NCBI GenBank assembly: GCA_030431975.1
Contig: JAUIHP010000009.1
Span: forward strand, 124,001 to 188,000
Length of the DNA: 64,000 nt
DNA from: a bacterium
GTDB lineage: Bacteria; Eisenbacteria; RBG-16-71-46; CAIMUX01
Direction: 5' to 3'
The notes beneath the pieces are model-generated. The model searched no databases. It saw only the letters and a program-made list of their open reading frames with translations, and was not told the DNA's origin. Shown piece by piece: positions 8,837 through 41,831 of this stretch. Within the stretch, counting starts at the first letter, position 1. Every line of letters starts with the position of its first letter. The position numbers and the translations under genes are program-made.

Positions 8837-11800
8837 TCAGAAATTCAACAGGCGGCGCGCGGCCTCCAAAATCTCCTCTTCACTCGGCAGAAAGGCCGCT
8901 TCCAACGACGGCGAGTACGGGACCGGCGTATCCAAGGCTCCAATGACCCGAACCGGTGCGTCCAAATGAAGGAACGCTTCCTCCTGAATGATCGCCGCCA
9001 GGCTCTCCCCCACACTTCCCGTCCGCGTGTCCTCATGGACGACAAGGACGCGGCCGCAGTGTCGGGCTACCCGTAGCAGCGATTCCCGATCCAACGGGAC
9101 GAGCGAACGGAGGTCAAGAACCGAAGCTTCGATTCCTTCCTCCGACAGCGCTTCCGCGACGGCCATAGCTTTGTGGACATACGCGCCGTAGGAGACGAGC
9201 GCGAGATCGGAACCGGCCCGGCGAAGCGACGCTTTACCCAAAGGCAACGGCTCGGGTGCAGCGTCATCGAGGATCTGCTTGATCTTCGGATCGCGGTAGA
9301 GACCGATGTGCTCGTAGTAGAGGACCGGATCCGGGTCGGCCACGGCTGCAGCGAGAAAGGCCCGCGCATCATGGGGCGTCGACGGACAGACGATCTTGAG
9401 ACCTGGCACCCGATAGAACCACGGCTCCGTGTTCTGCGAGTGGTACGGACCTGCGCTCCGCAGTCCACCCCACGGCATGCGGACGACCATCGGGACTTCC
9501 TGTCCCCAACGGTAGCGCACCTTCGCCGCATTGTTGACGAGCTGGTTGAACCCGGTCGCGACGAAGTCGTTGAACTGCATCTCTCCAATGGGTCGGCGAC
9601 CAGCAATGGCGGCGCCGACACACACACCTAGGACACCGCCCTCGGCCAAGGTCGAGTTGAGAATCCGACCGCGGAACTCTTCCAGGAGCGGACGCAACAG
9701 CAGAAATGCGTTGCCGTACTTCCCGCCTACGTCCTGTCCGTAAACGAAGACGCGATCATCGTCGGTCAATGCATCCCGCACCCCGAGCTGGACGGCTTCC
9801 AAAAACGTGCGGCCACTCGCGTCGAACGGAGGCCCGGGATCCAGCGGAGGCAAGGTGGTATCAGGCTCCGAGGAGTCAGCACGTCGGATGAGTGGATCCA
9901 CTCGACGCGCCACGGTGTCCCCAGCGAATACCCGAGTGCCGACCTCCTCCGGGTCCGGCCATGGCGCCTCGATCACCGCCTGCGCCTCCTCTTCGACCAG
10001 CGCTTCGGCCTCTTTGATCCACCGCTCGAACTCGCCTTCCTGGATCAGTTCCAGCGCTTCCAGCCTCTTTCGATAGACCTGAATGGGATCCCGCTCGAAC
10101 CAGAACTGGTAGGCCTTTTCGTCGGCGTAGCCTCCTTCGGAAAGCTTCGGATACTCCCACGACGGCGAGGGTTCCTTGCCCAGATAGAGCATGTCGTCGT
10201 GGTGGGCGTGACCACACATTCGCATCGAGATCAACTCGATCAAAACCGGTCCGTCGCCATCGCGAGCACGATCTGCGCCCCAGGCAAAGGCAGCGGCAAT
10301 CATCTCTGGATCCGTTCCGTCGACCGTGACGGTGGGAAGGCCGTACCCTGCCGCCTTCTCGGCAAAAACGCGCGCGGTCGTTTGATCGACAAGCGGAGTC
10401 GAAAGCGCCGTCTGGTTGTTCTGAACACAAAAGACGACGGGCAAACTTCCCGCCGCGCACAGATTGATCGCTTCGTGCCATTCGCCGAGGGAAGAGCCGC
10501 CGTCCCCGATGAAGGAAAGTGCCACCCGGGGTGCGCCCTCCAACTCGAAGGCCATGCCCATCCCGGCAACGGTCAGCGTTGAAATGGCCAGCGGCGCCGA
10601 CGCCGGCACCACACCCCAGGAAAGATCGCCGATATGAAGGTCACGACCGTCCATCGGTGGACCGGCTTTCCCCATTTGCGCGTTCAGGACCTGGCGAACC
10701 ATCTCCCGCTCCGGACGCATCGCAAGCGCGACGCCGAGGTCCCGAATGAGAGGAGCCACGACGTCACCGCTCCAGCTTCCATCCTCAGATCGGTAGTGCT
10801 CGCCGCGCTGCAACCGAATGCCGGCGCCGTAGATCGCTTCCTGTCCCAGAGAGCGGAAGCCCTTTCCCTGAAATCCCTTGTTGCCGTAACGCACTTCGCC
10901 GTTCGTGAAGAACGCCTTTAGCCGATTGTCCACGGCGCGCGTCAGGATCATTCCGCGCAGAAGTTCGCGGCGCTCATCGTCCGTAATGGAGGCGGCAATG
11001 CGTTGACGCTCGAGTTGATCGTCGATGGAATCGAGAAGATCTTCCTTGGAGAAGTCGTAGCGCTCCTCGGCGGAAACTCCCGGCGTCGTTTCTCCCAAAC
11101 GAAGCGGACGCAGGTTGAGTGCAGACTCGAGATCTTCGCGAATCGGCTCTTTCAAGTCTTCGATCGCCTGCGGGTCCCGATCCGGTCTCCCTTCGGACTT
11201 GACGAAGACGCGCGCGATGACGTTCGCCAGTTCGTTGACGAGCAAGGGGTGGCGTTCGGCGAGAAAGGTCATCAGTTCGAAATAGGCGCGAGACTCGACC
11301 TTCGAACTCGTCGGCGTGGCCTCCTCACCTCTCTGTGGAGGCTGGACGAATCCACCGTCGTGCGAGGAGCGGCGTCCGTCGTCACGGCGGTTGTCTCGCC
11401 GGTCGTCATGACGGCCGTGGCCCCGCGATGAACCGAAGTCGCGCCGATCGTGTCGATCGCCCCTGGAATCACGGTCGAACCGACGCCCATCGCGAGGTCC
11501 GCCACGGTCTCTTCCGAAGCGATCCCCATCCCGTGGTCCTCTGGGCCCGCGAGAGTCGCGGTCGAAGCGCCCCCCTTCGCGCGGTGGGCGGGACCCGCGA
11601 TCAAATCCGCCGCCGTCGCGCGGAGGACGCGAGCCACGATCGAAACCGCCGCGATTGCCATCGCGAGGCCCGCGAGAGTCGCGGTCAAAACGACCTCCGT
11701 CACGCGGTGGACGCGAGCCACGATCGAAACCGCCGCGGTCACGATCGCGAGGGCCACGGGAGTCGCGGTCAAAACGGCCACCGTCGCGCGGTGGACGCGA

Positions 11801-12499
11801 GCCTCGGTCGAAACCGCCGCGATCACGATCGCGAGGGCCGCGGGAATCGCGGTCAAAACGACCTCCGTCACGCGGTGGACGCGAGCCACGGTCGAAACCG
11901 CCGCGGTCACGATCGCGAGGGCCACGGGAGTCGCGGTCAAAACGGCCACCGTCGCGCGGTGGACGCGAGCCTCGGTCGAAACCGCCGCGATCACGATCGC
12001 GAGGGCCGCGGGAATCGCGGTCAAAACGACCTCCGTCACGCGGAGGACGCGAGCCACGGTCGAATCCGCCGCGGTCACGATCGCGAGGGCCGCGGGAATC
12101 ACGGTCGAAGCGCCCCCCGTCGCGCGGAGGACGAGAGCCTGGGTTGAACCCTCCACGGTCGCGATCACGGGGATTGCGTGAACCGCGGTCGAACCGATCC
12201 CTACCGCGTGGGGGACGCGAGCCGCGGTCGAACCCGCCGCGGTCACGATCGCGCGGGCCGCGGGAATCACGACCCCTCGGTCCTCGAGCGTCACGGTCGT
12301 AGGGTTTTCCATCTCTGGGACCGCCGCCACCGCGCCGGTCCGAGTCGCCACTATCTCCGCGCGAAGGACGGTCGTCGCGAGGTTCGTTCTTTCCACCCTC
12401 GGACCCTTCGTCGCTACGCCGAGGACCGGACGACTCGCCCTTCCCTTCCGCGTTGGGACGGCGCTCGTTGGAAGCGCCTTCTTTCGTTTCCTCGTCCAT
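8837..12499 (-). CDS. Fused E1 alpha/beta 2-oxoacid dehydrogenase with a giant Arg/Gly/Asp-rich repeat N-terminus
   Basis: 1220 residues. Residues from about 405 to the end are a single-chain E1 enzyme (alpha then beta) of the pyruvate/branched-chain 2-oxoacid dehydrogenase type. The thiamine-diphosphate motif GDGGSSLGEWHEAINL...NN lies near 661-691. The alpha part includes MRMCGHAHHDD. The beta part starts near 890 and includes VYGQDVGGKYGNAF, MPWGGLRSAGPYHSQ and YGAYVHKAM. Residues 1-400 are unlike any E1: highly charged and disordered, with eight 28-residue units of the type RGGFDRGSRPPRDGGRFDRD. The reading frame is uninterrupted from tail to enzyme. No E2 or E3 gene is in the window. A substrate cannot be assigned; branched-chain 2-oxoacids or pyruvate are both possible. 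Confidence 0.93.
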   Translation of the reverse strand: MDEETKEGASNERRPNAEGKGESSGPRRSDEGSEGGKNEPRDDRPSRGDSGDSDRRGGGGPRDGKPYDRDARGPRGRDSRGPRDRDRGGFDRGSRPPRGRDRFDRGSRNPRDRDRGGFNPGSRPPRDGGRFDRDSRGPRDRDRGGFDRGSRPPRDGGRFDRDSRGPRDRDRGGFDRGSRPPRDGGRFDRDSRGPRDRDRGGFDRGSRPPRDGGRFDRDSRGPRDRDRGGFDRGSRPPRDGGRFDRDSRGPRDRDRGGFDRGSRPPRDGGRFDRDSRGPRDGNRGGFDRGSRPPRDGGGFDRGSRPPREGGRFDRDSRGPRGPRDGDRFGRDRGGPRDGRRFDRDSRGDRHDRRDFGSSRGHGRHDDRRDNRRDDGRRSSHDGGFVQPPQRGEEATPTSSKVESRAYFELMTFLAERHPLLVNELANVIARVFVKSEGRPDRDPQAIEDLKEPIREDLESALNLRPLRLGETTPGVSAEERYDFSKEDLLDSIDDQLERQRIAASITDDERRELLRGMILTRAVDNRLKAFFTNGEVRYGNKGFQGKGFRSLGQEAIYGAGIRLQRGEHYRSEDGSWSGDVVAPLIRDLGVALAMRPEREMVRQVLNAQMGKAGPPMDGRDLHIGDLSWGVVPASAPLAISTLTVAGMGMAFELEGAPRVALSFIGDGGSSLGEWHEAINLCAAGSLPVVFCVQNNQTALSTPLVDQTTARVFAEKAAGYGLPTVTVDGTDPEMIAAAFAWGADRARDGDGPVLIELISMRMCGHAHHDDMLYLGKEPSPSWEYPKLSEGGYADEKAYQFWFERDPIQVYRKRLEALELIQEGEFERWIKEAEALVEEEAQAVIEAPWPDPEEVGTRVFAGDTVARRVDPLIRRADSSEPDTTLPPLDPGPPFDASGRTFLEAVQLGVRDALTDDDRVFVYGQDVGGKYGNAFLLLRPLLEEFRGRILNSTLAEGGVLGVCVGAAIAGRRPIGEMQFNDFVATGFNQLVNNAAKVRYRWGQEVPMVVRMPWGGLRSAGPYHSQNTEPWFYRVPGLKIVCPSTPHDARAFLAAAVADPDPVLYYEHIGLYRDPKIKQILDDAAPEPLPLGKASLRRAGSDLALVSYGAYVHKAMAVAEALSEEGIEASVLDLRSLVPLDRESLLRVARHCGRVLVVHEDTRTGSVGESLAAIIQEEAFLHLDAPVRVIGALDTPVPYSPSLEAAFLPSEEEILEAARRLLNF
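11653..12260 (-). repeat. 84-bp coding tandem repeat with 168-bp higher-order period
   Basis: About eight 84-bp units (28 codons) encode the Arg/Gly/Asp-rich tail of the E1 fusion. Two unit types alternate, giving a 168-bp super-repeat. The landmark CACGCGGTGGAC (GAGGAC in the third copy) recurs at 11701, 11869 and 12037, exactly 168 bp apart, and the intervening sequence is almost identical. This indicates recent expansion by unequal crossing-over. Because the period is a multiple of three, all three opposite-strand frames also stay open; those antisense ORFs are artefacts. Confidence 0.95.
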
Positions 12500-15003: not shown

Positions 15004-17148
15004 ATGGCAGAGAAGCCCCGCGACAAGTCGATCGAGGAATACCGCCGAAAGCGCCGGTTCGACAAGACCCCGGAGCCCGCACCCGGCGGGCGGGACGAAG
15101 AAGCCGCCGGGGTCCGACGGGTCTTTGTCATCCACCGGCACGACGCCCGCCGCCTGCATTACGACCTGCGATTGGAGATGGACGGGGTCCTCAAGTCCTG
15201 GGCCGTTCCCAAGGGGTTTTCCTACGATCCGTCCGACAAGAAGCTCGCCGTGCAGACAGAAGATCACCCCATCGAGTACGAGGATTTCCACGGCGTCATT
15301 CCCAAGGGTGAGTACGGGGCCGGAACCATGACCATCTGGGACCGCGGCACCTACATCTTCACGAACAAGGACGAAGAAGCCGGAGTCGGTGCCGGCAAAC
15401 TCGAGTTGGTTTTCTACGGACGGCGGCTTCGGGGCGAGTGGCACGTCGTCAAGACGAAGCAGGACGAAAGCTCCTGGCTGCTCTTCAAAGCCCGCGACCT
15501 CTATGCCCGCGCCGCCGAGGAGTCGATGGGCGGAGGCCTTTTGCAATCGATCGCAGCCGAACTTCCATGGAGCCTGGAGTCGGGAACTCCGGCGGGTCGC
15601 ACCTGGGAAGGTGAACCCGCCAAGGTTCCGGACCTGCGCGCCATGACGGCAGCCCGCCGGATCGACGGAGCTTTCGCCGATCCGAACTGGCTCTTCGAAA
15701 TGGGATTCGAGGGGAAGCGCGCCTTCCTCATCAAGTCGCCGGATGGAATCACGGTTCGCGTCGGCCGCAAGGACATCGCGGCGAAGTTTCCCGAGATCGT
15801 TGCCGAAGCCGAGAAAATGCGTGTGGAGCGAGCCATTCTCGACGGCACGCTGGTCGCGCTGGACGAAGGGGGTCGCCCCTCGGAACCGTCACTCGAAGAG
15901 CGAATCGCCGGAAACCGAGAGATCGCCGTCCAGTTCTACGCCTTTGATCTCGTCCACTTCGAAGAGTTCGACATTCGCCAGGTTCCGCTGTTGGAGCGAA
16001 AGCAGCAGTTGGCGTCGATCCTTCCTCCGGGAAAGGTCATCCAGTTCGTCGATCACGTCCCGGGGAATGGAGAGCCGCTGGCCCAGGCCATGGCGCAGTC
16101 CGGACTGACGCTGATGATGGCGAAGCGGACGGACTCTGAGTATGCCGGCGGCAAGTCGAAGGACTGGATCGAGATTCCCATCCTGCCGGCCGGCGATGCG
16201 CGAAAGAAGTCCGTCGGCGCCGCCCTGTCAGAAGGCGTTCATCTCAAACCCAAAGACGAACGCATCAAGTTCACGAACCTGAAGAAGGTCTACTGGCCGG
16301 ACGAGGGTTACACCAAAGGCGACCTGATCGCCTACTACGAGCAGATCGCGGAGTTCATCCTTCCCTACCTGCTGGACCGTCCCGTTCACCTCTATCGTTT
16401 TCCCGATGGAATCGACGGGAAGGAGTTCTATCAACACGAAGCTCCCGCCCACATTCCCGAATGGTTCGAGACGCTGCCCATCCCGAGCGAGAGCAAGCGA
16501 CGCGATGTGCCGCACATGATCGTGACCGACCGGACAAGCCTTCTCTATCTGATCAACCTGGGAAGCATCGACCTTCATCCGTGGCTCTCACGACGCTCGA
16601 ACCTGGAGTCACCCGACTGGACGGTGCTGGACCTCGATCCGAAGGACGCACCGTTTACCGATGTCGTCAAGGTCGCGCGGGCCATCAAGAAGATCCTCGA
16701 TGCGATTGGTCTTCGGGGAGCCCTCAAGACGTCCGGGTCCACCGGCCTTCACGTCTTCATTCCGATCGCAGCCGGCTACACCTACGAGCAGGCCCGCAGC
16801 TTTTCGGAAGCCCTGGCCCGAGTCATCGTCAAAGAGCACAAGGACATTGCAACCGTGGAACGCGTGACCAAACACAGGAAGAGTCGCGTCTACGTCGACT
16901 TCGGACAGAACCGGCAGGGACAGACCGTCGTTCCGGCCTATGTCGTGCGTCCCAAGCCGGGGGCGACGGTTTCGACTCCGCTTTTGTGGGAGGAACTTGA
17001 CGAGCCACTGACGCCGGGCGATTTCCACATCCGAAACGTGCCGCAACGGCTCGCCAGAACGGGCGACCTGTTCAAGCCCTACCACGGAATGCAGCAGGAT
17101 CTTCTACCCGCGTTGGAGAAACTCGGGGAGTATCTGCGGAAGAAGTGA
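15004..17148 (+). CDS. ligD: LigD-type NHEJ protein (phosphoesterase, degenerate ligase, polymerase)
   Basis: 714 residues in the Pseudomonas-like order PE-Lig-Pol. The 3'-phosphoesterase domain (about 20-165) has HRHDARRLHYDLRLEMDG and HGVIPKGEYGAGTM. The nucleotidyltransferase domain (about 205-400) keeps the fold pattern but has lost the catalytic set: the motif I Lys is G234 (FEMGFEGKRA instead of FEIKWDGYRA), the motif III Glu is T282 (LDGTLVAL for LDGEIVAL), the motif IV Glu is T369 (GLTLMMAKR for GLEGVVAKR), and motif V is DWIEIPI. The primase-polymerase domain (about 410-705) is intact: DLDPKD (D543, D545), SGSTGLHVF (H583) and YVDFGQN (D632). It therefore should process and fill ends but not seal them. 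The ATG at 15004 has no clear ribosome site. Confidence 0.93.
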   Translation: MAEKPRDKSIEEYRRKRRFDKTPEPAPGGRDEEAAGVRRVFVIHRHDARRLHYDLRLEMDGVLKSWAVPKGFSYDPSDKKLAVQTEDHPIEYEDFHGVIPKGEYGAGTMTIWDRGTYIFTNKDEEAGVGAGKLELVFYGRRLRGEWHVVKTKQDESSWLLFKARDLYARAAEESMGGGLLQSIAAELPWSLESGTPAGRTWEGEPAKVPDLRAMTAARRIDGAFADPNWLFEMGFEGKRAFLIKSPDGITVRVGRKDIAAKFPEIVAEAEKMRVERAILDGTLVALDEGGRPSEPSLEERIAGNREIAVQFYAFDLVHFEEFDIRQVPLLERKQQLASILPPGKVIQFVDHVPGNGEPLAQAMAQSGLTLMMAKRTDSEYAGGKSKDWIEIPILPAGDARKKSVGAALSEGVHLKPKDERIKFTNLKKVYWPDEGYTKGDLIAYYEQIAEFILPYLLDRPVHLYRFPDGIDGKEFYQHEAPAHIPEWFETLPIPSESKRRDVPHMIVTDRTSLLYLINLGSIDLHPWLSRRSNLESPDWTVLDLDPKDAPFTDVVKVARAIKKILDAIGLRGALKTSGSTGLHVFIPIAAGYTYEQARSFSEALARVIVKEHKDIATVERVTKHRKSRVYVDFGQNRQGQTVVPAYVVRPKPGATVSTPLLWEELDEPLTPGDFHIRNVPQRLARTGDLFKPYHGMQQDLLPALEKLGEYLRKK

Positions 17149-22400: not shown

Positions 22401-24413
22401 CTACCGTCGAACGACGATCTTGGCAACTCCCCGGCTTTCATCTGTCGGCGAGGCAGCGTCCATTCCTTCGGTTGATACCGGGCCTAGATCGCGACGAAGC
22501 GCTGCAGAGCGGGTGACGGCATAGTAGATGCCGCTCGGAACGACTCGCCCGGCTTGGTCTTTGCCATCCCAGGTGACGGATTGCATTCCGTCGGAGCCAC
22601 TGCCGTTCCCTGGGCGGAGCGTACGAACCCGGCGCCCCTGCGCGTCGATGACGTGAATCTCCATCTCATCCACTGATGAGCTCCCGATTCTGCAGTCGAG
22701 CTGGACCCTGCCGCTCGTCGGATTCGGGGTTACCTTCAACCGAGCCGCGCCTGCCGGGCCGCCACCGTCATCCCAGTCGTCCCACTCCCCCCAATCCTCC
22801 CATTCGTCTGCGGAAGACGTCGCGCCCGGCGAGTGCGGAATGATTCCCAAAGCCTCCCAGCTGAATGCCTGTTCGCCGAGTTCCTCTTCGACGGTCCAGG
22901 CACCGGTTCCTGGGTCGATCGAAACGAGCTGCGCCGTCGCACGAATGATCCCCAGGATCCGATCGCTCGAGGCGTCGTAGTCCAATCCGACGACATCCGC
23001 TGTCGGTCCAACGGCCGTGGCCTCCCCCGTCTGAGGGTCGATGCGCACCAGCTCGGAGGGAACTCCACCTGCCACGCTGTAGAGAAAACCATCCATCGGC
23101 CGGTACGCGATGTCCCGGGCGAAAACACCGGTCTGTTCCGGAAGCTGGGAAAAGAGTCCGGACGAGAATTCGTAGACATGCATTTCCTGCGCATCCGACG
23201 CATGGAGGAACAGACGATCATTCGTCGAGTCATAGGCCATGCCCCAGATGTTGACGGGCCCACTGATCCCGGTGTCAGACTTGAGTCCGCTCCTCGGATC
23301 CAGGATGTAGAGCCGTCCCGAGTTGTAGTCGGAAGTCCAAAAGCCGCCATCCGATTCGCGGTAGGCCAGGGAGAAGAAGATGTCGCCGGTGCTTCCCGTG
23401 CCGTAGAACGTGCGGCGGGCGCACTCGCCGGTCTCCGTGTGAATCCGAAGCTGCGGCGCCCCGATGCTGTAGGCGACCGGAGCGTCTTCGTCATCCGGAA
23501 GGCGAACCCAGACGTACATCTGCGACTCCGAGTTCTCGACAAGAAAGAGGTCCCCGGTCAGAGGATCGATGGTAATCCCCGCGAATGCGAACGGCACGGC
23601 GCCCAATGGGATGTCTTCGTGCTGCCAAACGATCTCATCGACGAAGAAGCCGTTCTCGTCGATGACCTGGATTCCGCTGTGCTCGAGCGCGACGAGGAAC
23701 AGTCCTTCGCCGAACGGAGAACCTGGCGGAATCCAGCAGATCCCGTCAACGATTGCGTCTGGCGCCGCGTCGAGTTGCGATGTGAAATCCGTCGCTTTAC
23801 TCGAACTGACCGGAACGCCGTCCCGGGTGAACTTGAACCACGCGTTCGACTCGATCTCGCCAAAGTCCGGACCGGCGTCGACGACGTAGACGTACTCCAT
23901 GTCGAGGGCGAGTCCGCGCACCGACTCCAAGGTGTCCGGCCCCACCCCCGGGACCTCAAAGATCTCGGGAATGGTGAACAGAAGTGTCTGGCTTCCGTCC
24001 TCCCAGAACTTGACCTCACGCGCCTGATTGATCGTCCAGAGCCTCTCGTCGACGGGATCCCACGATGCGCCCTGATCGGCGAACCCGGTCTGCACGCCGT
24101 CTCCGCAAGGGTCCGTCAACGCTACCGACAGGACCTCCCGTTCGATCGGATCAAAGGCCACGTCGAGCGAGCCCTGCATTTCGCCACGGGTGACGTAGAA
24201 GGTCTGACCAAGAAACTCGACGAACGGTGCTGCACTCGCGTCGACGAATCGCACTCCGGATCCCAAGCTCGCAAGGGCGACGAGCCCGACCACATGGAAT
24301 GCGTGGACCAAACTGTGCCGCCAGGTGTGCGTCCGTGTTCGCGTCCGGGTGCGCGTCCGCCGCGAAGTGTTGACGACCTGCGCCGACGACTTGCGTCCAA
24401 TCAGGGTGAGCAT
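22401..24413 (-). CDS. Secreted beta-propeller protein with FlgD-like C-terminal module
   Basis: 670 residues from the ATG at 24413, which has an excellent GGAGGAACC ribosome site. The frame extends upstream to 24968, but that extension only translates a microsatellite and antisense of the sigma gene. A long n-region with repeated Arg-Thr precedes a signal-peptide core around residues 40-56 (VVGLVALASLGSG). The body shows repeating propeller strands (ASWDPVDERLWTINQ, DPLTGDLFLVENSE, YDSTNDRLFLHAS, YDASSDRILGII). The C-terminus is an FlgD-like module (IDAQGRRVRTL, WDGKDQAGRVVPSGIYY) with an unusual extra loop before the final KIVVRR strand. Confidence 0.82.
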   Translation of the reverse strand: MLTLIGRKSSAQVVNTSRRTRTRTRTRTHTWRHSLVHAFHVVGLVALASLGSGVRFVDASAAPFVEFLGQTFYVTRGEMQGSLDVAFDPIEREVLSVALTDPCGDGVQTGFADQGASWDPVDERLWTINQAREVKFWEDGSQTLLFTIPEIFEVPGVGPDTLESVRGLALDMEYVYVVDAGPDFGEIESNAWFKFTRDGVPVSSSKATDFTSQLDAAPDAIVDGICWIPPGSPFGEGLFLVALEHSGIQVIDENGFFVDEIVWQHEDIPLGAVPFAFAGITIDPLTGDLFLVENSESQMYVWVRLPDDEDAPVAYSIGAPQLRIHTETGECARRTFYGTGSTGDIFFSLAYRESDGGFWTSDYNSGRLYILDPRSGLKSDTGISGPVNIWGMAYDSTNDRLFLHASDAQEMHVYEFSSGLFSQLPEQTGVFARDIAYRPMDGFLYSVAGGVPSELVRIDPQTGEATAVGPTADVVGLDYDASSDRILGIIRATAQLVSIDPGTGAWTVEEELGEQAFSWEALGIIPHSPGATSSADEWEDWGEWDDWDDGGGPAGAARLKVTPNPTSGRVQLDCRIGSSSVDEMEIHVIDAQGRRVRTLRPGNGSGSDGMQSVTWDGKDQAGRVVPSGIYYAVTRSAALRRDLGPVSTEGMDAASPTDESRGVAKIVVRR

Positions 24414-24721
24414 GGTTCCTCCGACTTCCTTCCGTCCCGTTCCCGTTCCCGTTCCCGTTCCCGTTCCCGTTCCCGTTCCCGTTCCCGTCCACTTCACGTT
24501 CACGTGCAACGCGCCAACTCCCCCTTCAGACGAATGCGGAACCCAGATGCGCACAGCAAAAATGGCCGATGAAATGAACCGGTACGGCCGGTCCGTGGGA
24601 TCGAGACGGACACGACGAACCACACGGCGGTCCGCCGCAGCCGCGCGCAGATTCGCCACTGCAGTAGACCCTCGCGTTTGGATCGGGCTAGTCTCATTGC
24701 AATCAACGGATTGGAGCGAAC
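24414..24721. other. Intergenic region between divergent secreted-propeller and sigma-factor genes
   Basis: 308 bases. It holds the ribosome site of the minus-strand gene, the hexamer array, and about 230 bases that must contain the two divergent promoters. CACTTCACGTTCACGTG at 24490-24506 resembles the decamer repeat found upstream of the 18706 gene. No small gene or RNA structure was recognised. Confidence 0.6.
24436..24488. repeat. Hexanucleotide microsatellite (CCCGTT)n
   Basis: About 8.8 perfect copies of CCCGTT (AACGGG on the coding strand of the downstream gene). The array lies 23-75 bases upstream of the ATG at 24413 and stops just before its ribosome site. Changes in copy number would alter promoter or leader spacing without touching the reading frame. 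Confidence 0.95.
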
Positions 24722-25321
24722 GTGGACTCGAGCCAACAGGACTTGAAAGCGGCCCAGGAACGCGTCGCAAACACAGCCGTGCTCCTGGACGCCGTCCGAA
24801 GCGGTGACAAAGCGGCCCGTGAGGCCCTTGTCCAACGCTACCTACCGATTCTCCTTCGATGGTCACACGGCCGGCTCCCCGATCACTCCCGATTCGTATC
24901 GGATACATCAGATGTTGTGCAGATTGCCCTTCTCCGTGCGTTAGATCATGTGGACGAGTTCCGTTCACGCCGCGAAGGTGCGTTCCTGGCGTATCTCCGT
25001 CGAATCGTTCTCAACACGATTCGAGATGAGATACGTCGCGCCAAAGTTCGTAGGGCGGAGGACATTGGTGAACACAAGGTCTCTGATCCGAAACCGCTTC
25101 CTCTCGACGACGCAATCGAGTCAGAGACCCTCGTCGCCTACGAAGACGCGTTGACCGAAATGCCGGAGCACTCGAGGGAGGCCATCATCATGCGCATCGA
25201 GTTCGGCTTCAGCTATCCGGAGATCGCTGCTGCGGTCGGAAGTCCGTCCGCAAACGCGGCTCGCATGATGGTGACCCGTGCGTTGGTCGAGCTGGCCGAT
25301 CGACTCGAGGGACGAAAGTGA
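24722..25321 (+). CDS. ECF-type RNA polymerase sigma factor
   Basis: 199 residues, GTG start preceded by GGAGCG. Sigma region 2 lies at about 30-100 (REALVQRYLPILLRW, SDVVQIALLRALDHVDEF), and region 4 at about 140-195 (YEDALTEMPEHSREAIIMR, FSYPEIAAAVGSPSANAARMM). No anti-sigma gene is present. Instead its stop overlaps the GTG of a Ser/Thr kinase gene. Kinase-associated sigma factors of this kind are known in Planctomycetes and relatives, where phosphorylation is thought to replace an anti-sigma factor. Confidence 0.92.
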   Translation: MDSSQQDLKAAQERVANTAVLLDAVRSGDKAAREALVQRYLPILLRWSHGRLPDHSRFVSDTSDVVQIALLRALDHVDEFRSRREGAFLAYLRRIVLNTIRDEIRRAKVRRAEDIGEHKVSDPKPLPLDDAIESETLVAYEDALTEMPEHSREAIIMRIEFGFSYPEIAAAVGSPSANAARMMVTRALVELADRLEGRK

Positions 25322-37139: not shown

Positions 37140-38699
37140 TTACTCCAGGTCTCGAAGGCAGGACCGAACGTGGTCGGCCCAGTCACTGCTGGGATCCTGT
37201 CGCAGATACAGCTCCCAATGCTGCCTGGCCTCGGCGTCCCGCCCCATGCTGTGCAGGACTTCACCAAGGTTGTAGTGCGCGTCCGCATATGTCGGGTCAG
37301 TGGCCAGCGACTTGCGCAGCGCCTTGACCGCTTCGGCCGGTCGGCCGACTTCGAAGAGGGCATTGCCGAGGTTGTTCCAGGCCTCGATGTAGCCGGGATC
37401 GATCTCGACCGCCTGCAGGAACCGTTGGATTGCTTCTTCCAGCCGGTTCATGCTCTGAAAGACGTTTCCGAGGTTGAAGCAGGCATCGGCCGACGGTCCG
37501 TCGACGGCGAGAGCATTGAGGTAGGCCTCGGACGCCTCTTTCAGGCGGCCGGCCTCTTCCAACTCGGCGGCCTGTTCAAACCAGTTCTCGGCTTCCGGCG
37601 AACGACCGGACGACTCCGAGTCGGAGTGCGATCGCGGGCCCGAACCGGCCCAGGCTCCCGAACCCGAACGCAAACCGGTCAGATCCGGAAACTGGAGCAC
37701 TCCTTTGTGGACCCTCGTGTCTTCCGGCGAGTCGCCACTCCCGGCCCCGGCGGACTCCTTGTGCGAGGAAGCCGCATCCCAGGATCCCGCGCCGGTCGTG
37801 CCCGTGGATCCCGAACCCATCGTGTCGGCCGCGTCGTTAGTGCTGGCAGCGTTGTTCGTGTCGGACGTGTTGTTCGCGTCGGACGCACCGGTCGTGTCGG
37901 ACGTGCCGGTCGAATCCACCAAACCTGAGGCACCGTCTCGGGAGCCCCCACCGTCTCCGGGCGCGGAGCCGCCACGGTGCACGCCGCCAGGTTTCGCGCC
38001 GGCTGAAGACCCGCCGATCGGCCTCGCGCCTCCGGCCTGTTCGGAATTCCCGCGCAACGGAATCTGCAGCTGCCCGGACGGATCCGCGATGGACCCATCT
38101 TCCAGGCGAATGAAAAGCCGGCCGTCCTCTTCCAGAATCCCAAGCTGGACCAGGCTCTTCCCCGCTCCCGGCAACCAGGACTCCATGTCCTCGAGGCTGT
38201 GACGGATGCGGTTGAGCGGAACCCCGGACTGGATCAGATCTTGCAGACGCTTGGCACTGGCGACTTGGCCGAAGTCAAAGTAGTAGAGCCGGTTGACGAT
38301 TTTGACCGGACGAATGAGACCCCGCCGCACCCAGGAATCGATCTCCCGCCGCTCGATCCCGAGAATCCGGCTGAGCTGCTGGGAGGTGTACAGCCGCAGC
38401 AACTCGTCGAGCCCGAGCTTGGCAAGAAACTCGGTCTCCGTGAGGATCTCGATCTCATGACCCTCCGCCTTGAGGCGATGGGCGACGGCCAGACTTCCCG
38501 TCGGTTTCCCGTCATCACAGAGGGCAGAGACGGCCTCGCCGAGCACGAGAAAATCGGTTTCCGCGGTCGGAGTCTTGTCATGCGTTGCGCCGACCATCTC
38601 GAGGAAGGCCAAGGCCTCCTCCCGCCGCATGGAGAGCAGTTTTCCGCTGAGGGCAACGTGGTGGCCGCGCAGGGTGTCTTTGGCCGGTGATTCGGTCAT
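37140..38699 (-). CDS. BRCT - MerR-type HTH - TPR protein with disordered linker
   Basis: 519 residues. Residues about 8-85 look like a BRCT domain (VALSGKLLSMRREEALAF, VGATHDKTPTAETDFLVLG). Residues about 98-175 form a MerR-like winged helix (YTSQQLSRILGIERREIDSW, LYYFDFGQVASAKRLQDL). A low-complexity linker follows at about 195-370 with Ser/Thr/Asn/Asp-Ala runs (SDTTGASDANNTSDTNNAAS). The C-terminal 140 residues are TPRs (AWNNLGNALFEVGRPAEAV, AHYNLGEVLHSMGRDAEA). I recall similar proteins in Planctomycetes; function unknown. DNA binding with TPR-mediated partner recruitment is the natural inference. A near-palindrome lies in the divergent promoter region. Confidence 0.82.
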   Translation of the reverse strand: MTESPAKDTLRGHHVALSGKLLSMRREEALAFLEMVGATHDKTPTAETDFLVLGEAVSALCDDGKPTGSLAVAHRLKAEGHEIEILTETEFLAKLGLDELLRLYTSQQLSRILGIERREIDSWVRRGLIRPVKIVNRLYYFDFGQVASAKRLQDLIQSGVPLNRIRHSLEDMESWLPGAGKSLVQLGILEEDGRLFIRLEDGSIADPSGQLQIPLRGNSEQAGGARPIGGSSAGAKPGGVHRGGSAPGDGGGSRDGASGLVDSTGTSDTTGASDANNTSDTNNAASTNDAADTMGSGSTGTTGAGSWDAASSHKESAGAGSGDSPEDTRVHKGVLQFPDLTGLRSGSGAWAGSGPRSHSDSESSGRSPEAENWFEQAAELEEAGRLKEASEAYLNALAVDGPSADACFNLGNVFQSMNRLEEAIQRFLQAVEIDPGYIEAWNNLGNALFEVGRPAEAVKALRKSLATDPTYADAHYNLGEVLHSMGRDAEARQHWELYLRQDPSSDWADHVRSCLRDLE

Positions 38700-38827: not shown

Positions 38828-38915
38828 CTGATCAAGCTGGGGCGGCTAAGATTGAGGGGTGCCCGGGCACGGGCAAGGGAACCGCCACGAATCGGCCATC
38901 CGGATCTCGGGCCGA

Positions 38916-39773
38916 ATGTTCTTCGTCGGAACAACCAACCTCGATACGTCAATCGAATCGAGGCGAGCGCAAGAGGATCGAGCCATCTCACTCATCCGCG
39001 AAAAACTCCTCCACCTGCAACTGCGAGGCGACCGTGCTTTCCGCTGGCGCGGTGGTGACGTCTCCCGACTCGAAGGTTTGAGCGACGCGGTCTTTGCATT
39101 CTCCATCACGCTGCTCGTCGTCTCGCTCGACGTGCCGCAGACCTTCGACGAGCTGGCCCTCGTCATGCGGGGCTTCTTCGCGTTCGGCCTCTGCTTCTCT
39201 CTGCTCATCTACATCTGGTACAACCACTACGTCTTCTTCCGCCGGTACGGTTTGGAAGACCCGGCCACCGTGGCGTGGAACGGACTTCTCCTCTTCGTCA
39301 CGTTGTTCTACATCTACCCGCTGAAGTTTCTCTACGTGTGGTTGACCCGCGTCTTCCTCGGCGTCGAGTCGACGACCGCAACCGTCGTGACGGCCGAACA
39401 GATGCCATACCTCATGTGCATCTACTCCGGCGGATTCGTCGCCATCTTTCTCTGCTTCACCTTTCTCTATCTACATGCGCTTCGAAAGAAAGAGCATCTG
39501 CAACTGGACGAGCTGGAAGTGCACGAGACTTGGTCAAGTATCTACCTCAACTTGCTTCAGGCAGGAATCGGAGTGGTTTCGATTCTCATCGTCGTGCTCT
39601 GGGGAGGTCAGTCGGCTGCCTTCTTTGCAGGAGTGATCTACGCGCTGATCGGTCCGTCCGCCGCCCTGCTCGGTTGGATTCGAGGACGCCGATCCGAACC
39701 CCTGCGTCAGCTACCGCACGTCAAAGCCCGGCTCGAAGCCGCAGAACGCGGCGAGGGCTTTGCCATCGATTAA
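38916..39773 (+). CDS. TMEM175-like (DUF1211) membrane protein, putative K+ channel
   Basis: About 285 residues from the ATG at 38916. The frame opens with GTG at 38859, and neither start has a good ribosome site. The family signature RLEGLSDAVFAFSITLLVVSL occurs at about residue 47 (family consensus R-x-x-x-F-S-D-A-V-F-A-I). Further hydrophobic segments follow (GFFAFGLCFSLLIYIWYNHY, LLLFVTLFYIYPLKFLYVW, VVSILIVVLWGG). Bacterial TMEM175 proteins are tetrameric potassium channels without a P-loop. It is divergent from the BRCT-MerR-TPR gene. Confidence 0.82.
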   Translation: MFFVGTTNLDTSIESRRAQEDRAISLIREKLLHLQLRGDRAFRWRGGDVSRLEGLSDAVFAFSITLLVVSLDVPQTFDELALVMRGFFAFGLCFSLLIYIWYNHYVFFRRYGLEDPATVAWNGLLLFVTLFYIYPLKFLYVWLTRVFLGVESTTATVVTAEQMPYLMCIYSGGFVAIFLCFTFLYLHALRKKEHLQLDELEVHETWSSIYLNLLQAGIGVVSILIVVLWGGQSAAFFAGVIYALIGPSAALLGWIRGRRSEPLRQLPHVKARLEAAERGEGFAID

Positions 39774-39775
39774 GT

Positions 39776-40693
39776 CTAGCCGTCCTGCACCCACTCCACG
39801 AAAACGGGCGCACGCATCTGGCCGGCTTCGGTCATCTCGACATAGGAAACGATGCAGAAGAGCCCGGGATCCACCCAGGTCGTTTCCTCCAAAGACGTCG
39901 CCACAAACGGTTCCGGACGCACTCGCGATTCGAGTTCCGGCAGAAGAGTTCTCCGAACGACTTCATTCAGACCCGACCCGACGCGACCGACGCACCGAAG
40001 AGATCCGCCCTCGTCAGTAGCAACCACCAGGCTGCGCAGTCCACCCGTTTCGTCGACCTGAAATCCCATGATGACGCAGTAGACCGTCGTGCTCTTTTTG
40101 ATCTTGGTCCACGCATCGGATCGCCGACCAGGCAGATAGACACTGTCCATCCGCTTGGCCACGATGCCTTCCAGGTCCTGCTTCTTCGACTCTTCGAAGA
40201 GCTTCGTTCCGCGGCCGACAATGCCGTCCGAAAGAAGAATGCGCGCGTGGCCGATCGGCTCGATGATCGAACGAAGCCGTTCACGCCGATCCATGAGCGT
40301 TTCGTCCATCACCGCTTCGCCGTCGTGGTAGAGACAGTCAAAGGCGACGAACAGGACCGGACTCGACTTGGACATCCTGTCGATCTGCCCCGCCGCTTTC
40401 GTCCGCTCTCGTTTCAGCAGCAGTTGGAAGCTGGGCTTGCCGTCCTGAAGAGCAACGATCTCGCCGTCGAGAAGGACGCCCTCGGGTAAAGAATCCAGGA
40501 TGGAAAGCTCGGGAAATCGCGGTCGCAAATCATTGTCACGCCGGCTGCGAACGGTGGCCCCGGATTCGTCTCGCCGAACCAGAGCGCGAAAGCCGTCCCA
40601 TTTCCATTCGAAGAAATGGTCGTCCGAGTCAAAGGGATTGCGCCCAAGCTGAGCCAGCATCGGAGAAACGAAACGAGGTACCGAGAAGGTCAT
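39776..40693 (-). CDS. ligC: ATP-dependent DNA ligase (LigC/LigD-ligase type), catalytically intact
   Basis: 305 residues. The nucleotidyltransferase domain has the adenylation Lys in FFEWKWDGFRALVRR, motif III LLDGEIVAL, motif IV DLEGIVAKRMDS and motif V DAWTKIKK. The C-terminal OB-fold domain follows (VIMGFQVDETGG, RCVGRVGSG). It lies 223 bases downstream of Ku on the same strand. Its catalytic residues are exactly those missing from the LigD at 15004-17148, so it is the likely sealing enzyme of the end-joining pathway. Confidence 0.93.
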   Translation of the reverse strand: MTFSVPRFVSPMLAQLGRNPFDSDDHFFEWKWDGFRALVRRDESGATVRSRRDNDLRPRFPELSILDSLPEGVLLDGEIVALQDGKPSFQLLLKRERTKAAGQIDRMSKSSPVLFVAFDCLYHDGEAVMDETLMDRRERLRSIIEPIGHARILLSDGIVGRGTKLFEESKKQDLEGIVAKRMDSVYLPGRRSDAWTKIKKSTTVYCVIMGFQVDETGGLRSLVVATDEGGSLRCVGRVGSGLNEVVRRTLLPELESRVRPEPFVATSLEETTWVDPGLFCIVSYVEMTEAGQMRAPVFVEWVQDG

Positions 40694-40916: not shown

Positions 40917-41831
40917 CTACTGACCCGCCGACCTCTTGGCCCGAGTGGTACGAGTCGTCGACTTGGCAGACTTGGTCTTCTTGGCAGTCTTCGCCTTCTT
41001 CTTCACACTCTTGGCCGGAGCTTCGTCAACGGGTCCGTCCGTGCCGGTGCCCATGGCGTTGGCGATGCTTTCTTTGAGCGCGTCCATCAGGTTGATGATC
41101 TGCGGCTCTTCCGCCTCCGCGACCTCGACGATCTCCTTGCCTTCGACCTTCATCTGGATGAGTTCGGTCAGCTTGCCGACGTACTCGTCCTTGTAGTTTC
41201 CGTAGTCGAAGTTCTTGACCTTGCTCGCCTGGATCAGAGTTCGCGTGAGGTTGAGTTCCTCTTCACTGAGTTCCGGCGTCTGGATTTCGTCGTGGAAGGA
41301 CTCGGGCTTCTTCACCTTCTCTGCGTACTGCAGAACGGTCATCGCGATCATGTCGTCCATCGCCCGCAACAAAACCTTCTGCTCCCGACCGGAGATGATG
41401 ATCTGCCCGAACGCGACGAGTTCCTCTTCATCAATCCCGTGCCGAAACAGAGCATACGGCTTTTGGCCGACCGGGCCGTCCGGTACCAGATAATAGGTTC
41501 GACCGGCGTGATAGACCGGGTCGATCGACGAAGCGGGGACGAAGCCGTGGACCTCAATCGAGCGATCGCTCTGCTTCCTCAGCTTCTGCACTTCGTCGGT
41601 GTCGATGACGACGTACTGCCCCTTGGCAAACTCGTATCCGCTCACAATCTCGTCGTTGGGTATCTCGCCGTGGTTGGGACAGGTCTTCTGATACTTGACC
41701 CGGGTGTTGCACTCGGAATGGAGCTGATTGAGTCGGATGTCCGCTCCGGACTGCGAAGCGGTGTACGCCTTGACGGGCACGGATACCAAGCTGAGCTTGA
41801 TGAAGCCCTTCCAGCTCGAGCGTGGAGCCAT
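40917..41831 (-). CDS. ku: Ku protein (NHEJ DNA-end binding)
   Basis: 304 residues, typical bacterial Ku. It opens with WKGFIKLSLVSVPVKAYTA and contains LHSECNTRVKYQKTCP, the KGQYVVIDTDEV stretch and AMDDMIAMTVLQYAEKV. A Lys/Ala/Thr-rich C-terminal tail (KKKAKTAKKTKSAKST) is the kind that modulates DNA binding and ligase recruitment. Homodimeric Ku encircles broken DNA ends and recruits LigD. It is upstream of the intact ligase on the same strand. Confidence 0.96.
   Translation of the reverse strand: MAPRSSWKGFIKLSLVSVPVKAYTASQSGADIRLNQLHSECNTRVKYQKTCPNHGEIPNDEIVSGYEFAKGQYVVIDTDEVQKLRKQSDRSIEVHGFVPASSIDPVYHAGRTYYLVPDGPVGQKPYALFRHGIDEEELVAFGQIIISGREQKVLLRAMDDMIAMTVLQYAEKVKKPESFHDEIQTPELSEEELNLTRTLIQASKVKNFDYGNYKDEYVGKLTELIQMKVEGKEIVEVAEAEEPQIINLMDALKESIANAMGTGTDGPVDEAPAKSVKKKAKTAKKTKSAKSTTRTTRAKRSAGQ

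What the first reader, a model, noticed from the sequence alone, without database searches (positions are those of the whole stretch)
15004..17148. LigD with a dead ligase domain
The ligase domain keeps its length and general pattern, yet the adenylation Lys (G234), motif III Glu (T282), motif IV Glu (T369) and motif V Lys residues are all replaced, while the phosphoesterase and polymerase domains keep their catalytic residues. The preserved frame and length suggest selection for a structural or binding role, such as recruiting Ku or the separate ligase.
Basis: partly seen in the sequence, partly recalled or inferred. Interest (0 to 1): 0.75.

Follow-up and report, generated by a model that had tools for sequence, protein, structure and literature searches.

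The report
LigD with a conserved dead ligase
A bacterial break-repair enzyme that normally trims, fills and seals broken DNA has lost its sealing chemistry and half of its sealing domain, yet has kept a folded remnant in four genomes from at least three lineages, each of which also carries a separate intact sealing enzyme, so it looks like a three-part version of a repair kit that is usually two-part.

Summary
Gene 15004-17148 encodes PE - pseudo-ligase - Pol. Five ligase active-site positions (Lys, Asp, motif III Glu, motif IV Glu, first motif V Lys) are replaced in it and in three relatives, and intact in 14 of 14 ordinary LigDs aligned with it. PE and Pol are complete. The C-terminal OB-fold (PF04679, about 100 aa plus linker) is missing; only the nucleotidyltransferase core remains.

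It is not a pseudogene or artefact: the same architecture occurs in two Eisenbacteria genera, a Krumholzibacteriota and a fourth genome of another lineage. The pseudo-ligases form one clade (100/98) under purifying selection (dN/dS about 0.45-0.54, weaker than on PE and Pol). All four genomes also carry one kind of stand-alone NHEJ-type ligase, absent from 14 phylum members with intact LigD. It directly follows Ku in three of four genomes (40-42 kb in this window); in two, the Ku-ligase pair is divergent from the pseudo-LigD gene.

Best reading: three-component NHEJ in which pseudo-LigD heals ends, the stand-alone ligase seals in trans, and the pseudo-ligase is kept as a fold, probably a Ku-docking surface. 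Docking is inferred, not shown; a tolerated remnant is the main rival.

The parts
15004..17148 (+). pseudo-LigD gene, 714 aa: PE - pseudo-ligase (NTase core only) - Prim-Pol
   Evidence: ORF; Pfam; NCBIfam
15034..15498 (+). 3'-phosphoesterase (PE) domain, residues 11-165; H46, H52, D54, R56, H88, Y92 retained
   Evidence: TIGR02777 201.4 bits against cut-off 144; residues
15649..16179 (+). pseudo-ligase NTase core, residues 216-392
   Evidence: PF01068 41.4 bits, positions 19-201; model pLDDT mostly 71-89 per 10-residue block; Foldseek to LigD ligase 6nhx/1vs0
15703..15705 (+). codon of G234, place of the motif I adenylation Lys (Lys481 in M. tuberculosis LigD)
   Evidence: G/I/E/D in four pseudo-LigDs, K in 14 of 14 intact
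15847..15849 (+). codon of T282, place of motif III Glu (Glu530)
   Evidence: T/V/V/V against E in 14 of 14
16108..16110 (+). codon of T369, place of motif IV Glu (Glu613)
   Evidence: T/H/A/P against E in 14 of 14
16171..16179 (+). E390-I-P392, place of the motif V Lys-x-Lys (Lys635, Lys637)
   Evidence: E/E/R/R and P/E/P/A against K in 14 of 14 and K in 10 of 14
16180..16263 (+). 28-aa junction where the OB-fold should be (deleted)
   Evidence: 24-29 aa in pseudo-LigDs against 139-186 aa in intact LigDs; no PF04679
16264..17121 (+). Prim-Pol domain, residues 421-706; D543, D545, D632 retained
   Evidence: PF21686 E=1.7e-86; TIGR02778 235.7 against cut-off 214.7; residues
39776..40693 (-). 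stand-alone ATP-dependent ligase, 305 aa, all motifs and OB-fold present; presumed sealing partner
   Evidence: PF01068 6e-37 and PF04679 4.2e-14; motifs; ORF
40917..41831 (-). Ku, 304 aa, upstream of the stand-alone ligase on the same strand; the only Ku found in the assembly
   Evidence: TIGR02772 247.6 bits against cut-off 150; conserved EEPxxINLMxALKxS region and Lys-rich tail

Best explanation
This is a ligase-dead LigD that works as the end-processing subunit of a three-component NHEJ system. Ku holds the ends. The pseudo-LigD removes 3' blocks (PE) and fills gaps (Pol). Sealing is done in trans by the small complete ligase encoded next to Ku. The NTase core is kept as a folded, non-catalytic module between PE and Pol, most likely because it still gives Ku, and possibly the separate ligase, a docking surface and sets the spacing of PE and Pol. 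Shown: loss of ligase motifs and OB-fold; intact PE and Pol; recurrence; monophyly; purifying selection; presence of the partner ligase in every pseudo-LigD genome seen. Inferred: trans sealing and docking.
For: (1) Five active-site positions lost in 4/4, kept in 14/14; OB-fold gone; PE and Pol pass cut-offs. (2) Same architecture in G002 (Eisenbacteria HKST-UBA01), G059 (Krumholzibacteriota OFTM315) and G463. (3) Pseudo-ligase clade 100/98 and stand-alone ligase clade 100/99 (three genomes each). (4) Gene order: G059 ligase and Ku, then divergent pseudo-LigD; G463 pseudo-LigD divergent from Ku and ligase; window Ku and ligase 24 kb away. In 11 phylum members with intact LigD, Ku also lies beside and divergent from LigD. 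(5) In the phylum the stand-alone clade is in both pseudo-LigD genomes and in none of 14 with intact LigD, by tree and hit tables (one hit of G022 not placed); relatives of it are also in G059 and G463. (6) dN/dS of the pseudo-ligase 0.45-0.54. (7) Model predicts the NTase fold. (8) Net charge of the domain falls to -5 to -8, against -4 to +5 in intact domains, which speaks for a protein rather than a DNA surface. (9) Literature: the LIG domain of M. tuberculosis LigD binds the Ku core directly (PMC9638933); in B. subtilis the Ku minimal C-terminal helix is predicted to pack on LigDom (PMC13201618). A matching Ku region is conserved in all four genomes.
Against: No binding or activity was measured. 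In M. tuberculosis the Pol domain alone also binds Ku (PMC9638933), so the pseudo-ligase may not be needed for docking. The pseudo-ligase evolves faster than PE and Pol. In G002, Ku and the ligase are on different contigs, and the gene downstream of Ku is not the ligase. The genome holds a further 507-aa ATP ligase that could seal instead.
Confidence: 0.55

Rival explanations
1. Tolerated remnant. A stand-alone ligase took over sealing, the LigD ligase domain lost its chemistry and OB-fold, and what is left is only a folded spacer between PE and Pol, with no partner of its own.
For: dN/dS is about 1.2 to 2.4 times that of Pol in the pairs compared. Identity in the pseudo-ligase (54.5, 36.6, 40.1%) lies below what the regression on intact LigDs gives at the same Pol identity, about 64, 50 and 53%. 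Many invariant residues are also invariant in intact ligases, as fold residues would be.
Against: Still dN/dS below 1 and 36-55% identity after a split between phyla; every member kept the NTase core while losing the OB-fold; twelve positions are invariant in pseudo-LigDs but rare in intact ones.
Confidence: 0.33
2. The domain kept non-covalent nucleotide binding and acts as an ATP sensor or regulator.
For: The residues equivalent to Glu479, Arg486, Lys618 and the motif IIIa Phe are invariant in all four. PMC8656161 gives Glu479, Arg486 and Lys618 as adenine or ribose contacts.
Against: The same residues may be kept for the fold; metal-binding Glu and phosphate-binding Lys are gone; the OB-fold that caps the pocket is gone.
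Confidence: 0.06
3. The ligase is still active through a migrated Lys.
For: K238 lies four residues from the lost Lys.
Against: K238 is L, R or L in the others and no new Lys is conserved; motif III and IV Glu and the OB-fold are lost as well.
Confidence: 0.02
4. Pseudogene, frameshift or assembly artefact.
For: Two of the source genomes are titled as metagenome assemblies, and the others may be too.
Against: Open frame in four assemblies; PE and Pol under strong purifying selection; full-length match at 63, 49 and 47% identity.
Confidence: 0.01

Closest known systems
Canonical PE-Lig-Pol LigD (Pseudomonas order; NCBIfam TIGR02776, PRK05972)
   Same: Domain order PE-Lig-Pol; PE and Pol complete; many relatives have Ku as divergent neighbour
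   Different: Ligase motifs I, III, IV and V lost and OB-fold deleted; TIGR02779 at 102.6 of 227.75 bits and TIGR02776 at 345.8 of 373.2
Split NHEJ systems (separate Lig, Pol and PE proteins, e.g. archaeal Methanocella paludicola; Streptomyces ku/ligC/pol loci, PMC5124664)
   Same: Ligase supplied as a separate protein
   Different: PE and Pol stay joined by a dead ligase core instead of being free-standing
LigC and other minimal-core ATP ligases
   Same: The partner ligase is a bare NTase plus OB core, here next to Ku
   Different: Scores 223.2 on the NHEJ ligase model (cut-off 227.75) and 147 on PRK08224 (cut-off 296); LigC-like in layout only
Pseudoenzymes retained as binding modules in multi-domain enzymes
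   Same: Fold kept, chemistry lost, active relative present in the genome
   Different: No description of a pseudo-ligase in LigD was found in the held literature

Membership tests
LigD (multi-domain NHEJ ligase) | PE domain with catalytic residues | tested here: met
   TIGR02777 over cut-off; residues
LigD (multi-domain NHEJ ligase) | Prim-Pol domain with catalytic Asp residues | tested here: met
   TIGR02778 and PF21686 over cut-off
LigD (multi-domain NHEJ ligase) | Ligase domain with motifs I, III, IV, V | tested here: not met
   TIGR02779 far below cut-off
LigD (multi-domain NHEJ ligase) | OB-fold domain of the ligase core | tested here: not met
   PF04679 absent; gap of 24-29 aa
LigD (multi-domain NHEJ ligase) | Descent from the LigD ligase domain | tested here: met
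   Groups on the LigD-type side of the ligase tree (deep forks weakly supported)
LigD (multi-domain NHEJ ligase) | Works with Ku at double-strand breaks | not testable with these tools
   Ku is encoded in all four genomes, adjacent in two
ATP-dependent DNA ligase (stand-alone partner) | All nucleotidyltransferase motifs and OB-fold | tested here: met
   the G463 copy is cut off by the contig end after the NTase core
LigC | LigC-type model PRK08224 over cut-off | tested here: not met
   147 against 296 bits

The most novel reading that the evidence does not exclude
A distinct, ancient three-component bacterial NHEJ (Ku, trans-acting ligase, non-ligating PE-pseudo-ligase-Pol) in which the dead ligase core is an obligatory Ku and ligase docking module, so that evolution has separated the binding and catalytic roles of the LigD ligase domain.
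Probability: 0.4. Interest if true: 0.7.

Novelty: new variant of a known kind. Interest (0 to 1): 0.55.

Why it matters
LigD is usually described as one protein that does both processing and sealing. Recent work argues that its ligase domain also has a non-catalytic job, holding Ku (PMC9638933, PMC13201618). A lineage that has lost the chemistry and the OB-fold but kept the NTase fold is a natural separation-of-function mutant for that question. It also warns that surveys that count domains by profile match (such as PMC7719229) would be likely to score these genomes as carrying conventional LigD.

Tried and rejected
Migrated catalytic Lys: rejected, not conserved. Artefact or pseudogene: rejected by recurrence and selection. 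Merely a divergent active ligase: rejected by loss of five positions and the OB-fold. Literature on inactive LigD ligase domains: nothing found; a paper on Agrobacterium ligases that I wanted to check was not held. Promoter and terminator scan of the gene gave nothing above chance. A sample of 385 genomes spread over bacteria gave only one further pseudo-LigD, so frequency beyond these lineages is poorly known. The full-length structure has pTM 0.47, so domain arrangement was not interpreted.

Full report
What is there. The open frame at 15004-17148 encodes 714 aa. Pfam and NCBIfam find a 3'-phosphoesterase domain, a weak match to the ligase NTase domain and a strong Prim-Pol domain, in the Pseudomonas order PE-Lig-Pol. 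Aligned with 14 ordinary LigDs, the residues equivalent to Lys481, Asp483, Glu530, Glu613 and Lys635 of M. tuberculosis LigD are G, E, T, T and E; the second motif V Lys is P. The published work summarised in PMC8656161 names Lys481 as the nucleophile and reports that changing Glu613 or Lys637 to Ala abolishes nick sealing. So the domain cannot be expected to seal DNA. PE and Pol catalytic residues are all present.

The ligase domain is not full length. A ligase core is an NTase domain plus an OB-fold. Here the OB-fold is gone: PF04679 is found in an intact relative and in the complete stand-alone ligases, not in the pseudo-LigDs; the profile match stops at position 181-186 of 302; and 24-29 aa separate motif V from Pol instead of 139-186.

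It recurs. Searches found the same architecture in G002 (Candidatus Eisenbacteria HKST-UBA01, 63% identity), in G059 (Candidatus Krumholzibacteriota OFTM315, 49%), and in G463, a genome of another lineage (47%). In all four the same five positions are lost, mostly to different residues. The tree of ligase domains, made before G463 was found, puts the first three in one clade (100/98) on the LigD side. One loss followed by inheritance or transfer explains this better than repeated decay, though the tree cannot tell vertical descent from transfer.

It is under selection. Between the members dN/dS is 0.45-0.54 for the pseudo-ligase, 0.25-0.31 for PE and 0.19-0.44 for Pol (simple counting method, synonymous changes near saturation). 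Identity is lower than intact ligase domains show at the same Pol identity. So constraint is relaxed but not lost. AlphaFold2 gives the NTase region confidence mostly of 71-89 per ten-residue block, and Foldseek matches it to archaeal ligases and to the LigD ligase domain.

Where the ligase went. The assembly has one Ku and one Prim-Pol protein and three PF01068 proteins: the pseudo-LigD, a 507-aa ligase with an N-terminal domain on another contig, and a 305-aa core ligase at 39776-40693 directly downstream of Ku. The 305-aa ligase has all motifs and the OB-fold and matches the NHEJ ligase model best (223.2 bits, just under its cut-off). Relatives of this ligase are in all four pseudo-LigD genomes and form a clade in the tree, which covers three of them (100/99). 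Among 14 phylum members with intact LigD none has a member of this clade in the tree; a few have other small ligases, and one such hit was not placed. The association of 4 of 4 against 0 of 14 is unlikely by chance, but the genomes are not independent. In G059 and G463 the order is pseudo-LigD, divergent Ku, ligase. In this window Ku and ligase are 24 kb from the pseudo-LigD. In G002, whose assembly is in many pieces, Ku and ligase are on separate contigs.

How it probably works. Ku binds and bridges ends; pseudo-LigD heals and fills; the small ligase seals. Why keep the dead core? In M. tuberculosis the ligase domain alone binds the Ku core (PMC9638933). In B. subtilis the Ku minimal C-terminal helix is predicted to pack on the ligase domain, and ligation depends on the Ku core (PMC13201618). 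The Ku proteins of all four genomes keep a conserved stretch, EEPxxINLMxALKxS, after the core; that it is the minimal C-terminal helix is my reading. The pseudo-ligase has lost positive charge (net -5 to -8, intact -4 to +5), which fits a protein-binding role better than DNA binding. This is inference. The plain alternative, a folded spacer left over after the separate ligase took over, is not excluded. Retention of the residues equivalent to Glu479, Arg486 and Lys618 leaves open weak nucleotide binding.

Novelty and value. Missing, reordered and separately encoded LigD domains are known (PMC8656161, PMC7719229, PMC5124664). A conserved pseudo-ligase LigD paired with a Ku-linked ligase was not found in the literature held; papers outside that library were not checked. 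I file it as a new variant of a known kind. Loss of ligase function is close to certain (about 0.97); the three-component reading with a kept docking core is moderately likely (0.55).

Noticed in passing
window 11577-12268, inside ORF 8837-12499 (-): A fused alpha/beta E1 2-oxoacid dehydrogenase (Pfam) carries an N-terminal Arg/Gly/Asp-rich tandem repeat of about 8 units of 84 bp (units like GGFDRGSRPPRDGGRFDRDSRGPRDRDR); an RGG-like tail on a metabolic enzyme seems unusual.
   Followed up: partly
window 37140-38699 (-): A protein near the Ku-ligase pair with a MerR-type helix-turn-helix and TPR repeats; its N-terminus looks by eye like a BRCT domain, with no Pfam match to one.
   Followed up: partly
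window 38859-39773 (+) and L170 259-993: A TMEM175-like channel gene lies next to the stand-alone ligase here, and a similar gene lies about 7 kb from it in G002.
   Followed up: no
window 24435-24488: Perfect 9-copy hexamer repeat TCCCGT inside the long ORF 22401-24968 (-), giving a Thr-Gly run.
   Followed up: no
L020/L055 and L022/L056 (G006, G007): In two genomes of the same order PE, ligase and Pol are in separate open frames in a row, and no Ku was found.
   Followed up: no
G001 (same family as the window's genome): A 95% complete family member has no LigD, Ku or ATP-dependent ligase match at all, so the system is patchy even within the family.
   Followed up: no
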